Shown here piece after piece: positions 30,075 to 37,090 of a DNA stretch of 64,000 bases. Location of the stretch: assembly GCF_014171595.1 (NCBI RefSeq), contig NZ_CP050451.1, positions 3,224,001 through 3,288,000 on the forward strand, written 5' to 3'. This stretch comes from Massilia sp. Se16.2.3. GTDB taxonomy: Bacteria; Pseudomonadota; Gammaproteobacteria; Burkholderiales; Burkholderiaceae_D. The notes beneath the pieces are model-generated. The model searched no databases. It saw only the letters and a program-made list of their open reading frames with translations, and was not told the DNA's origin. A program made the position numbers and the translations under genes. Each line of letters opens with the position of its first letter. Position 1 is the stretch's first letter.

Positions 30075-31036
30075 GCGGCCGCGCTGTCAGGTGCCGGCGC
30101 GGGCACCCTGCGGTTAGCCACCCCGAAGGGCACATGCACCATCGGAATCGTTCCGCCGGGTGTGCTGCGCAGGTGCGACATCTGGTCGTCGAAGAAGATG
30201 TGCGGCTTGAACACGGACAGCACGCGCGACTTCTCCATGCCGCCCAGGAAGAAGGTTTCGTCGGCCGAGACGCCCCAGCTTTTCAGGGTGGTCACCACGC
30301 GCTCGTGCGACGGCGCGCTGCGGGCGGTGATGATGGCGATGCGCACGATGCGGCGATACTGGGGATCGCGCCGCTGGGCGGCTTCCTCCAGGCGCTGCAT
30401 CATCGCCAGTTGCTGGAACAGCTTCGCCAGCGGGCCCGGGCTGTGTGGCCGGTCCATGTGCAGGGTCTCGTGGGCGTGGAATTCGTCCAGGTCGTTATTG
30501 CGCTTGAAGACGGTTTCCGACTCGTCGTCGGCCAGCACGCCGTCGAAGTCGAAGGCCACGCGCAGCTCGAGGTCGTCGTCCTCGTCGGAGATCCGCGAGG
30601 GCAGCACCAGGCCGGCGGGGTAATCGATGGCAATCGCGCTGCTGACGTCTTCCGCGTTGGCGCTCAGGAACAGCGACGCGTTGAAGGCCGGCAGATACGG
30701 GTAGGGCGGCTTGCCGGCCATGAAGGCGGCGCGCGAGATATCCAGGCCATAGTGGGCGATCGAGCGCAGCACGCGCAGTCCCGTTTCCGGCGAATTGCGT
30801 GAAAACAGCACCACTTCGACCGGCGACTGCTCGGGGAAGCACTTGTTGATGTTGAGGAAGCGCCGGATGAAGGGGAAGGCGACGCCCTTGCCGAGCAGGG
30901 TATCGAGGTGCTGCTCCTGGTAGGCGCGGTATTCTTCCGGGCCGCGCTCGAGATAGACCTGGTGCGATTCGGACAGGTCGAACAGGGCGCTCGACGCGAC
31001 GCCGATTACCAGCTTTTGTTCAATCGGAAATGGCAT
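30071..31036 (-). CDS. Cytosolic 5'-nucleotidase family protein
   Basis: The 321-residue protein (start MPFPIEQKLVIGVASSALFD at 31036) matches the bacterial 5'-nucleotidase family PF06189. It has SALFDLSESHQVY near the start, RVAFDFDGVLADDESE as an acidic HAD-like centre, AIITARSAPSHERV, and a C-terminal FLGGMEKSRVL with FFDDQ. It is predicted to remove phosphate from nucleoside 5'-monophosphates in the cytoplasm. It is convergent with the patatin gene. Confidence 0.88.
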   Translation of the reverse strand: MPFPIEQKLVIGVASSALFDLSESHQVYLERGPEEYRAYQEQHLDTLLGKGVAFPFIRRFLNINKCFPEQSPVEVVLFSRNSPETGLRVLRSIAHYGLDISRAAFMAGKPPYPYLPAFNASLFLSANAEDVSSAIAIDYPAGLVLPSRISDEDDDLELRVAFDFDGVLADDESETVFKRNNDLDEFHAHETLHMDRPHSPGPLAKLFQQLAMMQRLEEAAQRRDPQYRRIVRIAIITARSAPSHERVVTTLKSWGVSADETFFLGGMEKSRVLSVFKPHIFFDDQMSHLRSTPGGTIPMVHVPFGVANRRVPAPAPDSAAA

Positions 31037-31240
31037 GGGTCTCCTGGCGATGCGTTGGCGCCACGAGCCCGGTGGGCGCGCGTGGCTGTTCGGTTCAATT
31101 CTACCGGACAACAATGCAGGAGAGGAAGCAGGGCGGGGGAGCGCGGCTCGGGCGGGAACAGCAGATGCAGGAAAAGGAAGGCCGGGAAAAATCCCGGCCC
31201 CTGCGGCACGCCGGGGCGTGCCGCGCAATGGGTGGCTGGC

Positions 31241-31575
31241 TTAGCGGCCGGTACCGCCGGTGGTGCCGGTGGTGGTGCCGGTTGCGGTGCCCGAGGTGCC
31301 GGTCGTGCCGGTCGTGCCCGTGGTGCCGGTCGTGCCCGTCGTACCGGTGGTGCCGGTGGTGCCGGTCGCGCCCGAGGTGCCGAGGTGCCCGTGCCCCAGC
31401 TGCCCGAGGTGCCGCCGGTGGTGCCCGAGGTACCCGAAGCGGCGCCGCTGGTGCCCGTGGAGCCCGATGCGCTCGAACCGGTCGACGAGTCGGTGCTGGT
31501 GCCGGTCGAGCTGCATGCTGCCAGGCCCAAGCCCATCACGCCGGCCAGGATAATGCTCAGAGTGGTGCGTTTCAT
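31241..31575 (-). CDS. Low-complexity Gly/Thr/Ser lipoprotein (one-base loss near 31382)
   Basis: A strong aaggagg site precedes the ATG at 31575. The product MKRTTLSIILAGVMGLGLAA then Cys is a lipoprotein signal with lipobox LAAC. The mature part is almost only Ser, Thr and Gly. In one frame it degenerates after WGTGTS into Pro/Arg-rich sequence. Adding one G near 31382 restores GTSGATGTTG and then seven or more Gly-Thr-Thr triplets encoded by a nine-base tandem repeat, with a stop at 31241. It is a paralog of the lipoprotein at 31710-31979. The function is unknown; it may be an envelope spacer or stress lipoprotein. Confidence 0.75.
31255..31370. repeat. Nine-base tandem repeat coding Gly-Thr-Thr
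   Basis: Imperfect nine-base units (ggtgccggt / cgtgccggt type on the plus strand) run in tandem inside the lipoprotein gene and code for repeated Gly-Thr-Thr on the minus strand. This kind of repeat is prone to length change. Confidence 0.7.
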
Positions 31576-31709: not shown

Positions 31710-31979
31710 TCAGCGCTGGTCGCCACGGGTCGCGGTGCTTGCGCCCTCGGCCGGGCCGCTCGCGCTATCGACCGCACCGGTGGTGCCGGAGGTGGCGGTG
31801 GCGCCGGCCGATCCGGTGCTGCCGCTCGTCATCGAGCCGCTGCGCGCGCCGGAAACGCTGGCATCGACGGGGGTGCTGGTGCCGGTATTGTCGCCCGCGT
31901 TGCCGCTCATGCCGGCGCAGGCAGCCAGGCCCGGGGCGGCGGTGGCGCCGACCAGCAGGTTCGAAAGAGTGCGCTTCAT
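31710..31979 (-). CDS. Small Ser/Gly/Thr-rich lipoprotein
   Basis: The ATG at 31979 follows a gagg site. The signal MKRTLSNLLVGATAAPGLAA then Cys gives the lipobox LAAC. The mature 65 residues are low in complexity (Ser, Gly, Thr, Ala) and end TRGDQR. It resembles the lipoprotein at 31241-31575 in signal peptide, composition and upstream region, and is a tandem paralog. The function is unknown. Confidence 0.75.
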   Translation of the reverse strand: MKRTLSNLLVGATAAPGLAACAGMSGNAGDNTGTSTPVDASVSGARSGSMTSGSTGSAGATATSGTTGAVDSASGPAEGASTATRGDQR

Positions 31980-32036
31980 GGTCAACCTCGCAAAGTGATG
32001 GGAGGTTTCCATGATGTGGCGGCGGCGGGCGCCGCG

Positions 32037-32079
32037 CCATAGGAAGGCCACCAGCATGGCTGTGGGACATGCCGGACAG
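32037..32079 (-). promoter_or_regulatory. Conserved upstream block of lipoprotein 2
   Basis: ccatagg (32037-32043) and ccggacag (32072-32079), with gtgggacatg between them, match the block before the first lipoprotein in order and spacing. Confidence 0.5.
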
Positions 32080-32114: not shown

Positions 32115-33902
32115 TCAGCCCGCGCGCACCTGCTCGAGCCAGTCGACCAGCGCGCTCGACACCAGCGGCCGGCTGTAGAAATACCCCTGCCCCTTGGCGC
32201 AGCGCAGCGCGCGCACGGCCTCGGCCTGGCCCGCCGTCTCGATGCCTTCGGCCACGGTGTTCATCCCGAGGCTCTGCGCCACCTTGACCGTCGCTTCGAT
32301 CAGCACGCGGTGGTGGTGGCTGGTGTCGGCCTGGCAGACGAAGGAGCGGTCGATCTTGACCGTGTCCACCGGCAGCAGGTGCAGGCTCGACAGCGACGAG
32401 TAACCGGTGCCGAAGTCGTCGAGGGCGAGCTTGATGCCCAGCGCCTTCAGTTCGTGCAGGCGCGTCTGGATCTGTTCGTCCTGGGCCGCCAGGCTTTCCG
32501 TCACTTCCAGCTGCAGGCTGGCCGCCGGCATGCCGGTGCGCTCGAGGATGGCGGCCACCTTCGCCGTCCAGTCGGCCTGGGCCAGCTGGGCGCGCGACAG
32601 GTTCACCGCGATCAGGCGCGGGGCTGACACTCCCAGCTGGCCGCGCCAGGCCATGAAGTCGCGGCAGGCGCGTTCGAGCACGAAGTCGCCGATCTGGTCG
32701 ATCAGGCCGCATTCCTCGGCCACGCCGATGAAGTCGAATGGCGGCACCAGGCCGCGCGTCGGATGCTGCCAGCGCACCAGTGCCTCGACACCGGCCGCGT
32801 GGTCAGTCGTGCCGGCCGGATCCAGGCCCACGACCGGCTGGTACATCACGAACAGCTGCTCTTCGCGCAGCGCCAGGCGCAACTGCGCTTCGATGTCGGC
32901 ACGCCGCGCGGCCCGTTCGCGCATCGCCGCCTCGAACAGCACATGGCGGGCGCCGCCGGCGCGCTTGGCTTCGAGCATGGCGATACCGGCGTCGCGGATG
33001 GCTTCGTCGGCGTCGACGGCCGCTGCACTGCCGGCCGTGGCGCCGCTCCAGAACACCCCGATACTGGCGCGGCAGGCGAGCTGGTGGCCGTCGACATCGT
33101 GCGGCCGCGCGAGCGCGTCGAGCAGGCGCAGCGCCAGGCGTTCGGCTTCTTCGGGGTGGCGCAGGCCGCCCAGCAGGACGATGAATTCGTCGCCGCCGAC
33201 GCGTGCCACCAGGCCGGCGCCGCCCACACCCGGATCGACCCGGCCGCCCACGGGGGCAGGCCGCCGGCGCGCATGCGGTCGGCGAGCGCCTCCAGCAGGC
33301 GCTCGCCGACCGAAGTAAGCAGACGGTCGCCGGCCGCCTGGCCGAGCGTGTCGTTCACCTGGCGGAAGCGGTCGCAGTTCAGGAACAGCAGGGCGAGACC
33401 ATGTCCGCGCGCGCTGTCCTGGGCGGCACGGTCGAGCAGCAGTTGCACCTGCTCGCGCGCGGCGCCGCGGTTCGGCAGGCGCGTGAGGGCGTCGGTGCGG
33501 GCCGCGCTGCGCAGGCGGCGGCGCAGGGTTTCCTGCTCGCGCTCGATTTCGAGGGTGGCGTCGGTAATGGCTACCATCAAGCGCTGCTGGTCGAGCTTCA
33601 GGAGGCTGATCGACAGCACTTGCGGCGCACCCGGCGCCCGGGTGCTGCCTACCGGGACGCGCAGCGCCTCGCAGACCACGCCGGAGGGCGCATCGAAGCC
33701 GGCGGCCAGCTGGCGTAACTGGGGCGCGTTCGGCTCGAGCAGGGCGAACAGGTTGTCGAGGTCGCCGTTCGGCGCGAGCGGCATCAGCAGGTTCGAGGCC
33801 ATCGGGTTGAGCATTTCCACCACCCCGTCCAGGCCCGTCTGGACGAGCCCGATCGGCGCCCGGTACAGGAACTGGACGAGCGTTTCGTAGGCATCGATAT
33901 GG

Positions 33903-33913
<11 letters not shown>
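32115..33913 (-). CDS. PAS-GGDEF-EAL cyclic-di-GMP enzyme (one-base loss at 33252-33256)
   Basis: Residues about 15-130 form an N-terminal PAS-like domain (FLYRAPIGLVQTGLDGVVEM). It is followed by a GGDEF domain with VARVGGDEFIVLLGG and then an EAL domain with VEALVRWQHP, LALDDFGTGYSSL and KIDRSF. Both catalytic motifs are intact, so it may both make and degrade cyclic-di-GMP, or one domain may regulate the other. The frame breaks at a ggggg run (33252-33256); one more G restores it within the GGDEF domain. The start is 33913 or 33940, overlapping the end of the upstream PAS-PAS-GGDEF gene, so it is the third gene of the pyp operon. Its PAS is paralogous to that of its neighbour. Confidence 0.88.
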
Positions 33914-35304
<1,391 letters not shown>

Positions 35305-35308
<4 letters not shown>

Positions 35309-35685
35309 CGCCGCTGCACCAGCACGTAGCGGGTGGCGCTGGCGGTGCTGGCCAGCAGGCGCAGCTTGACTTTCACGGGGCGCATGCGCAGGGTCAGGAC
35401 GTAGTCGATCGTGTCGTCCAGTTCGCTGGCGTCGTCCGCGGCATCCTCGAAGCGCTGGGCCACCATGAAGTTGTTCAGGCAGGGTGCGACATTGGTGAAC
35501 AGCGGCTCGCCCAGCACCCGCTGAGGGGACAGTCCGGCGGCCTGCGACTCGAAGGCGTTGTAGCGCTGGACGATGGCGTCGGCATCGAAGCCGATCACGC
35601 CGAAGTCGAGCGCATCGAGCTGCTCCTGGCTGCTCGCTTCGAGGGTGGAGGCCAGATCGCGGTCGTCAAAGGATGGGGTGGTCAT
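35305..35685 (-). CDS. pyp: Photoactive yellow protein (blue-light photoreceptor)
   Basis: The 126-residue protein matches photoactive yellow protein of Halorhodospira (125 residues) at the same positions: Y42 and E46 in QRYNAFESQ, which hold the chromophore phenolate, and C69 in PLFTNVAPCLNN, which binds p-coumaric acid by thioester. The C-terminal part TIDYVLTLRMRPVKVKL matches the PYP strand carrying Met100 and the following Pro-Lys-Val, and it ends RYVLVQRR. Two other pocket residues differ (Ala at 50 and Leu at 52 instead of Thr and Arg), so the colour or photocycle may be shifted. A ggagg site precedes the ATG. The divergent neighbour is the p-coumarate ligase that charges this family. 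Confidence 0.9.
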
Positions 35686-35817
35686 AAGGGAAAGCCTCCA
35701 AACGAAGGACTTGCAATAAAAATTTACACAAAGAAACAAATGGTGGCAGGTGCTGGCGCCGAAGTCAATTGTGAGCAGGGTTTTGCCGGCCATTACGTTA
35801 CAAATTCTACCGTCTGG

Positions 35818-35846
35818 TTGACAATCGTGGCCCACGGCTGGCACCA
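35818..35846 (+). promoter_or_regulatory. Possible promoter of the p-coumarate ligase gene
   Basis: ttgaca at 35818-35823 is a consensus -35 box; the -10 position 17 bases on (gcacca) is poor. It lies about 35 bases before the ligase start in the 191-base region shared with pyp. Confidence 0.3.
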
Positions 35847-35876
35847 TCGCCCGCCTCGATTGCCAAAACTGAAATA

Positions 35877-37090
35877 ATGGACCCAGTTGCGCCTTCTCCG
35901 TGGTGGCAGGACGCGCCGGCGCTGGCCCGCGTGGTGCGCGACCTGCTCGCGGCCGAGCTGTCGCTGGCCCGACCCGGGCGGGTGCTGCCGCCCGCGCCCT
36001 GGCCGGGCTCGATCGACCTCGGCGCCGATCTCGGCGCCGATTCGCTCGACCTGATGGCGGCTGCCACGGCGCTGGGCGATTTGTTCGGGATGACGAACGA
36101 TGCCGGCGGAGGCCTGCTGGCCGCGCGCACGCTCGACGGCTGGATCGCCGCGCGCGCGCCGCCCTGTCCGGGGACGATACCCGGCTGACCTTCCGTACCT
36201 CGGGCAGCAGCGGCACGCCCAAGCGCTGCACGCACCGTCTGGCCGCACTATGGGAAGAGGTGAACGAACTGGCGCTGCTCGTCCCGGGGCGGCGGCGCGT
36301 CCTGTCCGCGGTCCCGGCACACCATGTCTACGGCTTCCTGTTCACGGTGCTGCTGCCCCGGGCGGGTGCCGCCCTGCCCGTGACCGACCTGCGCGCCGCG
36401 GCGCCCGGTGCGGTCGTGGCGCAACTGCTGCCGGGCGACCTGATGGTGGCGCACCCCGACTTCTGGGACCTGGCGGCGTCAAGCGAACCGCGCTTCCCCG
36501 CGGACGTCGTCGGCATCAGTTCGACCGCGCCGCTGCGCGATGCGAGCGCACGCGCGCTGGCATCGGGCGGCCTGCGGCTGCTGCAGGTGTATGGCAGTTC
36601 GGAGACGGCCGGCGTTGGGTGGCGCGACACGGCCGACGCTCCCTATCGCCTGTTCTCGTACTGGCGCCGTGGGGAGGAAGAGGGAACGATCGAGCGCGAG
36701 ACCGGTGGCGAAGGCGAGCGCTTTGCCTTGCAGGACCGGCTGTCCTGGAGCGGGCCTGACACCTTCCTCCCGGAGGGCCGCATCGACGCGGCGGTACAGG
36801 TGGGCGGCACGAATGTGTTCCCGGCTTATGTGGCCGAGGTACTGGCACTGCACCCGCAGGTGGCGCAGTGCGCGGTGCGGCCGATGCGGCTCGACGAGGG
36901 CAGGCGCCTGAAGGCTTTCGTGGTGCCGCACCCCGGGAACGATCCGGCAGCGCTGCGGGCCGGCCTGTCGACGTGGATCGGCGCGCGCCTGACGCCTGCC
37001 GAATGCCCGGCCGCGTATTCCTTCGGCCCCGACCTGCCGCGCCAGCCGAACGGCAAGCCGGCGGACTGGATCATCGACGCCCGGGATTGA
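35877..37090 (+). CDS. 4-coumarate--CoA ligase, PYP activation type (one-base loss near 36165)
   Basis: The N-terminal 100 residues (LGADLGADSLDLMAAATALG, then LDGWIAARA) resemble the small helical or carrier-like domain of the ligases that activate p-coumarate for photoactive yellow protein. The following part is an AMP-binding ligase with RLTFRTSGSSGTPKRCTH as the ATP loop, LLQVYGSSETAGVGW, and RQPNGKPADW with the late catalytic Lys. The frame breaks at the gcgcgcgcgccgccc segment near 36165; one base joins ARTLDGWIAAR to ALSGDDTRLTFR. The length after repair is about 404 residues. It is divergent from pyp, as expected if its product makes the p-coumaroyl-CoA used for the chromophore. No tyrosine ammonia-lyase gene is in the window. 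Confidence 0.85.

What the first reader, a model, noticed from the sequence alone, without database searches (positions are those of the whole stretch)
35305..37090. Photoactive yellow protein and its p-coumarate ligase as a divergent pair
The 126-residue protein at 35305-35685 has Tyr42, Glu46 and Cys69 at exactly the positions that hold p-coumaric acid in the Halorhodospira photoactive yellow protein, and a Met at the Met100 equivalent. The divergent gene is a ligase of the PYP-activation type. A complete light receptor with its charging enzyme is little described for Massilia-type soil bacteria. Two pocket residues differ (Ala50, Leu52), which predicts an altered absorption or photocycle.
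Basis: partly seen in the sequence, partly recalled or inferred. Interest (0 to 1): 0.88.

Follow-up and report, generated by a model that had tools for sequence, protein, structure and literature searches.

The report
Blue-light receptor and its partners
A soil bacterium carries a known kind of blue-light receptor beside the enzyme that charges it and two enzymes that make and break a signalling molecule; the receptor itself is of a published group, but the charging enzyme has an overlooked carrier-like domain and the signalling enzymes share an overlooked domain that keeps close company with this receptor.

Summary
35305-35685(-) is an intact photoactive yellow protein (PYP) with Tyr42, Glu46, Cys69 and Met100, and the divergent gene is a TIGR02372-type p-coumarate ligase (pCL). 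The novelty claim mostly fails: the protein fits the published, uncharacterised clade C of PYP, is found in 53 of 62 genomes of the genus, and Ala50/Leu52 are the published family consensus. In this assembly the pCL frame is broken, as are both downstream GGDEF genes; 21 of 71 conserved ORFs around the locus score as split, so assembly error is likelier than decay.

Two features came up that I did not find in the papers searched. (1) pCL has an N-terminal acyl-carrier-like domain; its attachment serine is invariant (275 of 275 rows with letters there, 278 aligned), and its profile resembles carrier proteins, not ligase N-termini. (2) Both downstream c-di-GMP genes begin with a PAS-fold domain without a Pfam match, which follows PYP in 77 of 77 loci and is found in the same 8 of 300 order genomes as PYP.

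Best reading: PYP signals through this PAS domain to a GGDEF/GGDEF-EAL pair; pCL charges PYP, perhaps via its own carrier. Signalling and carrier steps are inferred.

The parts
35305..35685 (-). PYP gene (126 aa), frame intact
   Evidence: TIGR02373 E 2e-22, under cut-off; Y42, E46, C69, M100
35877..36188 (+). first part of pCL, own frame; carrier-like domain at about 35895-36152, DSL serine codon 36042-36044
   Evidence: profile of relatives' domains matches it at E 6e-32; carrier homology; split from the ligase part
36185..37090 (+). ligase part of pCL (ANL fold; P-loop, YGSSET and final GK lysine motifs present), no ATG/GTG/TTG start of its own in place
   Evidence: TIGR02372 E 1.7e-79; translation
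33903..35308 (-). first c-di-GMP gene (N-terminal domain, PAS, GGDEF), frame broken at about 34380; its GTG overlaps the PYP stop
34883..35263 (-). PAS-fold N-terminal domain of the first gene (A3 profile)
   Evidence: E 1e-52
32115..33940 (-). second c-di-GMP gene (N-terminal domain, GGDEF, EAL), frame broken at about 33250
33515..33892 (-). PAS-fold N-terminal domain of the second gene (A3 profile)
   Evidence: E 1e-53

Best explanation
This is a light-to-c-di-GMP module. A single-domain clade C PYP carries p-coumarate as a thioester on Cys69 and senses blue light. It shares an operon with two c-di-GMP enzymes (PAS-PAS-GGDEF and PAS-GGDEF-EAL). Both begin with the same PAS-fold domain, which keeps company with this PYP and is most likely its docking receptor: light-changed PYP binds or leaves it and shifts the balance between c-di-GMP synthesis and breakdown. 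The divergent pCL activates p-coumarate as the adenylate and passes it to a thiol; its carrier-like domain suggests its own phosphopantetheine arm as acceptor before transfer to Cys69. p-Coumarate probably comes from plants or from a lyase elsewhere in the genome. Shown: genes, residues, family matches, linkage, homology of both domains. Inferred: light response, docking, direction of output, carrier loading. The broken frames in this genome are most likely assembly errors.
For: Y42, E46, C69, M100 in 78 of 78 sequences. N-terminal domain directly after PYP in 77 of 77 loci, second copy in 54 of 77; in 62 genus genomes 102 of 104 domain matches lie within 3.5 kb of PYP, in 53 of 53 PYP genomes, and the other two are in G063; the same 8 of 300 order genomes have PYP and domain, 292 neither; 5 of 6 plasmid loci fetched. 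PAS fold. GTGA overlap of PYP stop and next start. pCL: 49 of 50 matches beside a PYP; carrier-like domain: PDB profile hits, PF00550 in 27 of 31 members, hhalign 88.6% against 0.1% for ligase N-termini, D-S invariant in 275 of 275 rows with letters, pLDDT 93 with Ser57 at a helix start. Frame breaks elsewhere: 21 of 71 against 8 of 75.
Against: No experiment on any member. TIGR02373 and TIGR02372 scores are under the curated cut-offs. 10 of 53 PYP genomes in the genus lack pCL. G611 has two extra domain matches on contigs without a PYP match (68% complete). PF00550 matches are mostly weak (limit E 10; L006 itself has none, L009 E 0.2). VIA-align pairs the whole pCL model with whole ligases, N-termini included. 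PMC12826048 (section) describes pCL as attaching pCA to coenzyme A, with activity demonstrated, so the carrier may be unneeded.
Confidence: 0.7

Rival explanations
1. The carrier-like domain of pCL is structural or a relic; pCL works as a plain CoA ligase, and p-coumaroyl-CoA charges PYP.
For: PMC12826048 states that pCL attaches pCA to coenzyme A and that the activity was shown (section). Structural matches are to CoA ligases and carrier ligases alike.
Against: The DSL serine is invariant in 275 of 275 rows with letters there, which a mere cap would not need.
Confidence: 0.5
2. The shared N-terminal PAS domain senses its own ligand or serves for dimerisation, and PYP acts on the c-di-GMP proteins through another part or not at all.
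For: PAS domains often bind ligands of their own (recalled). G611 has two extra domain matches away from a PYP match.
Against: Same 8 of 300 order genomes; 102 of 104 genus matches near PYP; two different enzymes carry it.
Confidence: 0.2
3. In this strain the operon is decaying: the three broken genes are real mutations and only PYP is left intact.
For: pCL and both c-di-GMP genes are frame-broken while PYP is intact.
Against: 21 of 71 conserved ORFs in 200 kb score as split (three of them this locus; the count has some noise) against 8 of 75 in the reverse comparison; a hutH-like gene elsewhere is split. No relative of 34 has pCL split there.
Confidence: 0.15
4. The protein is a PAS domain that has left light sensing.
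For: TIGR02373 score under the cut-off; 10 of 53 genomes have PYP without pCL.
Against: Y42, E46, C69 and M100 in 78 of 78; linkage to pCL. PMC9664959 says the TIGR model covers about 20% of PYP homologs (section).
Confidence: 0.06

Closest known systems
Clade C PYPs of Burkholderiales beside GGDEF/EAL genes (PMC9664959)
   Same: Order, conserved Met100, pCA-binding residues, GGDEF/EAL neighbours, proposal of c-di-GMP control
   Different: The passages and sections I read do not mention a shared N-terminal receptor domain or a carrier domain in pCL; I built no tree to place the window's protein
Halorhodospira halophila PYP-pCL-TAL operon (clade A)
   Same: PYP with pCL; same three pCA-binding residues
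   Different: A50/L52 instead of T50/R52, no TAL beside it, c-di-GMP genes downstream, pCL divergent
Idiomarina loihiensis PYP beside a GGDEF protein (cited in PMC9664959)
   Same: PYP thought to act on a neighbouring cyclase and on biofilm
   Different: Clade A by that paper; not compared here by sequence
Ppd, PYP-phytochrome-GGDEF/EAL fusion of Thermochromatium tepidum
   Same: PYP coupled to c-di-GMP enzymes
   Different: One fused protein with a phytochrome; here separate genes and no phytochrome domain found
Ligase-carrier systems (DltA, PltF-PltL, VinM-VinL, PA1221)
   Same: ANL enzymes that load carrier proteins; present among the structural matches
   Different: In pCL the carrier-like domain comes before the ligase in the same chain, and the final acceptor would be a photoreceptor cysteine

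Membership tests
Photoactive yellow protein | Tyr42, Glu46, Cys69 for p-coumarate | tested here: met
   window and 78 of 78 sequences
Photoactive yellow protein | Full-length match to TIGR02373 over its curated cut-off | tested here: inconclusive
   full length, E 2e-22, but 79.6 bits against 143.05; the model is reported to cover about 20% of PYPs
Photoactive yellow protein | Bound p-coumaric acid and photocycle | not testable with these tools
   needs protein
PYP clade C | Position in the tree of PYPs | not tested
   assigned by order, Met100, loss of Phe96, and GGDEF neighbours as described in PMC9664959
4-coumarate ligase of PYP activation (TIGR02372) | Profile match over the cut-off | tested here: inconclusive
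   window 267 bits, intact relative L006 331.7, cut-off 334.7; 1 of 62 genus genomes over it
4-coumarate ligase of PYP activation (TIGR02372) | Gene beside a PYP | tested here: met
   49 of 50 matches in the genus
4-coumarate ligase of PYP activation (TIGR02372) | One open reading frame | tested here: not met
   split in the window; open in 34 of 34 relatives
Acyl/peptidyl carrier domain | Sequence homology to carrier proteins | tested here: met
   A2 profile against PDB best E 3e-4; hhalign 88.6%, E 2.7e-6; PF00550 best E 3.5e-5, 27 of 31 at E up to 10
Acyl/peptidyl carrier domain | Phosphopantetheine-attachment serine at the start of helix 2 | tested here: met
   275 of 275 rows with letters; Ser57 starts helix 57-71 in the model
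Acyl/peptidyl carrier domain | Four-helix carrier fold against solved structures | tested here: inconclusive
   helices in the right order, but the domain was not folded or searched alone, and ligases fill the list
Acyl/peptidyl carrier domain | Phosphopantetheine actually attached | not testable with these tools
   needs protein
PAS domain (N-terminus of the downstream genes) | PAS fold | tested here: met
   pLDDT 86 model; the 50 Foldseek rows shown are PAS proteins such as DosP, FixL, PYP and WalK, best E 4e-5; no Pfam match by sequence

The most novel reading that the evidence does not exclude
PYP-charging ligases are self-loading carrier enzymes: they place p-coumarate on their own phosphopantetheine arm and hand it to Cys69, so that a photoreceptor receives its chromophore from a carrier domain, as in peptide or polyketide assembly lines; and clade C PYP signals through one dedicated PAS receptor domain shared by a cyclase and a cyclase/phosphodiesterase.
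Probability: 0.33. Interest if true: 0.75.

Novelty: new variant of a known kind. Interest (0 to 1): 0.52.

Why it matters
PYP is a model photoreceptor, yet its signal chain is called an important gap in knowledge (abstract of PMC12826048), and clade C had no characterised member in 2022 (PMC9664959). A domain that keeps such close company with clade C PYP names a concrete candidate receptor and makes the question testable with two small proteins. A carrier domain in the charging enzyme would change how chromophore attachment is pictured for the PYP family and could help to make holo-PYP in cells.

Tried and rejected
Programmed frameshift or stop-start overlap (CTGA at 36185-36188) as the reason for the split ligase: rejected, because 34 of 34 relatives with the ligase part read both parts in one frame and splits are frequent in this assembly. 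Ala50/Leu52 as a peculiarity of this strain: rejected. N-terminal part of pCL as a shortened ligase N-terminus: disfavoured (no PF00501 match among 31 members), though VIA-align pairs the whole model with whole ligases. No carrier-only row appears, which says little because ligases fill the lists. Dedicated TAL: not found. The three PF00221 matches of the genome are one intact gene and one gene in two pieces; the intact one is under every curated cut-off; 5 of 9 genomes searched have such a second lyase. Promoter scan between PYP and pCL: 0 sites. In 398 phylum genomes 3 match TIGR02372 at E up to 1e-40 (at most 4 candidates per genome scored); one, L127, lacks the usual P-loop motif and was set aside. 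Dropped rows: 2 of 240 listed pCL proteins by length before (P0219, P0347). In one search, 27 of 30 carrier loci and 13 of 28 prepared ligase N-termini were used. In one search the pairing is mechanical: three of the 21 splits are this locus, and the one for the second c-di-GMP gene was scored through a hit to its paralogue. My notebook says 30 relatives with pCL; one search shows 34.

Full report
What is there. The 126-residue frame at 35305-35685(-) is a photoactive yellow protein. It matches TIGR02373 end to end at E 2e-22, but under the curated cut-off; PMC9664959 (section) reports that this model covers only about 20% of PYP homologs. Its 33 PDB matches by sequence are PYP, PPR or engineered PYP. 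The alignment, with Halorhodospira PYP as ruler, shows Y42, E46, C69 and M100 in 78 of 78 sequences (the window and the 77 loci). A50 is in 76 and L52 in 77 of these. Three second PYP copies in the same loci keep T50 and R52.

Where it belongs. PMC9664959 divides PYPs into three clades. Clade C is mostly from Proteobacteria, especially Burkholderiales, keeps Met100, is often next to GGDEF genes, and had no characterised member (sections). The window's protein fits that description; I built no tree. The gene is common: 3933 proteins at E up to 0.001, 77 loci in species genomes, 53 of 62 genomes of the genus. Some public records name it 'phosphonate transporter' or 'PAS domain-containing protein'.

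The neighbours on the same strand. The next gene starts with a GTG that overlaps the PYP stop (35305-35308). It holds an N-terminal region, a PAS domain and a GGDEF domain; the one after it holds a like N-terminal region, GGDEF and EAL. The N-terminal region of about 128 residues matches no Pfam family at E up to 1. Its model is a PAS fold, pLDDT 86, with DosP, FixL and PYP itself among the nearest solved structures. It follows PYP directly in 77 of 77 loci, and a second copy comes later in 54 of 77. In 62 genomes of the genus there are 104 matches at E up to 1e-15: 102 lie within 3.5 kb of PYP, in 53 of 53 PYP genomes; two lie in G063, which is 83% complete, has a pCL piece and shows no PYP; the other 8 genomes without PYP have none (Fisher test 2.7e-9 with G063 counted against). 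In 300 genomes of the order the same 8 genomes have PYP and the domain and 292 have neither. At most 14 candidates per genome were scored for the domain there, and G611 (68% complete) has two extra domain matches on contigs without a PYP match. Of 10 plasmid records with a pCL match I fetched six; in five (Caballeronia, Indioceanicola, Sphingomonas, Methylobacterium, Rhizobium) the domain lies beside a PYP that looks like clade C, and in the sixth, Niveispirillum, it was not in the stretch held.

The divergent gene. The ligase part matches TIGR02372 from profile position 99 on. In the window the first part of the gene is in another frame (35877-36188). All 34 relatives that have the start of the ligase part read both in one frame, open for at least 106 codons before it. 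TIGR02372 positions 8-86 cover this first part in an intact relative, so it belongs to the known family. What I did not find said anywhere is what it is. A profile of 31 such domains matches carrier proteins in the PDB: 102 matches at E up to 10, the 60 shown being acyl carrier proteins or carrier-bearing (PigH; that PigH bears carriers is recalled), best E 3e-4, serine on serine. Of 31 members 27 match PF00550 at E up to 10 (best 3.5e-5) and none matches PF00501; single members can fail (L006 none, L009 E 0.2 under the cut-off). In a direct contest hhalign gives 88.6% for carriers and 0.1% for ligase N-termini. The D-S pair is invariant in 275 of 275 rows with letters there, of 278 aligned (rows are related, so not independent), Alphaproteobacteria included. 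AlphaFold gives pLDDT 93 for the whole enzyme, with Ser57 at the start of a helix. Against this, VIA-align pairs the whole model with whole ligases, and the domain was not folded alone.

What is in print on this. Searches for 'photoactive yellow protein' with 'acyl carrier protein' and 'coumar' and with 'phosphopantethein' list three papers each. I saw passages of PMC3992019, which do not make the link, and only listings of the others. The main texts of PMC12826048 and PMC9664959 hold no word beginning with 'carrier' or 'phosphopantethein'; their supplements and most subscription papers were not available. PMC12826048 states that pCL attaches pCA to coenzyme A and that pCL activity was demonstrated, so the carrier step is a hypothesis beside an accepted route.

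Linkage of ligase and PYP. In the genus 44 of 62 genomes have a TIGR02372 match at E up to 1e-40: 43 of 53 with PYP and 1 of 9 without (G063; Fisher test 1e-4). Of 50 matches 41 lie beside the clade C type PYP, 8 beside a second PYP of 32-34% identity, and one is in G063. Ten PYP genomes have no such ligase. In L015, L018 and L019 no ligase hit was found in the stretch held, while an ORF like the neighbouring PBP1A is there (PBP1A seen by eye). How those PYPs are charged is open.

Broken frames. Three genes here are split (pCL and both c-di-GMP genes) while PYP is intact. To see whether this is special I compared 200 kb around the locus with G024: 21 of 71 conserved ORFs of G024 score as split in this genome, 8 of 75 the other way round. 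Three of the 21 are this locus, and the count is mechanical with some noise. A hutH-like gene at G000:C1:244881-246259 is split as well. Assembly error is the simplest reading; decay stays as a rival.

Chromophore supply. One intact PF00221 lyase (G000:C1:4027716-4029071) is under all curated cut-offs. It lies among ORFs that look, by eye, like an aryl-polyene pigment cluster (no domain search made). Five of nine genomes searched have such a second lyase, so it is not a constant companion of PYP. p-Coumarate from plants is a fair guess.

How it most likely works. Blue light isomerises p-coumarate on Cys69; the changed PYP binds or leaves the shared PAS domain of the cyclase and of the cyclase/phosphodiesterase; c-di-GMP changes, and with it probably adhesion or motility. 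Family, residues, gene order and linkage are shown; docking, direction and physiology are inferred. PMC9664959 already proposes that clade C PYPs act on neighbouring GGDEF/EAL proteins; the new part is a specific candidate receptor domain.

Verdict. The finding is real and its interpretation right in kind but overstated in novelty. The two overlooked domains are worth more than the pair itself.

Noticed in passing
G000:C1:3160001-3360000 (window and flanks): Frames of conserved genes are often split in this assembly: 21 of 71 against 8 of 75 in the reverse comparison, so gene calls from it need care.
   Followed up: partly
G000:C1:244881-246259: hutH-like aromatic lyase gene in two frames.
   Followed up: no
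L199:1230-16000 (G000:C1:4020001-4036000): The second aromatic lyase lies in what looks by eye like an aryl-polyene pigment cluster; a possible p-coumarate source.
   Followed up: partly
L129:2370-7179 (Indioceanicola profundi plasmid): One run of genes on one strand with two kinds of PYP (classical, and a clade C type listed as hypothetical protein), pcl, an aromatic lyase and a GGDEF gene with the PAS-fold domain.
   Followed up: partly
L128:2584-7014 (Caballeronia sp. SBC2 plasmid): Classical PYP and pCL facing EAL, cyclase and a second PYP named phosphonate transporter, which has Phe at position 42.
   Followed up: no
L048:5720-5893: A short stretch matching ligase residues 209-266 just before PYP, perhaps a remnant of a lost pCL.
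   Followed up: no
genus genomes G013, G015, G018, G027, G029, G036, G044, G062, G067, G069: Clade C type PYP and partner domain without any TIGR02372 match; how the chromophore is attached is unknown.
   Followed up: partly
window 31006-31575(-) and 31710-32057(-): Two short ORFs that start like lipoproteins and run into Ser/Thr/Gly-rich sequence.
   Followed up: no
public records of clade C type PYPs: Named 'phosphonate transporter' in several records, apparently a propagated misannotation.
   Followed up: no
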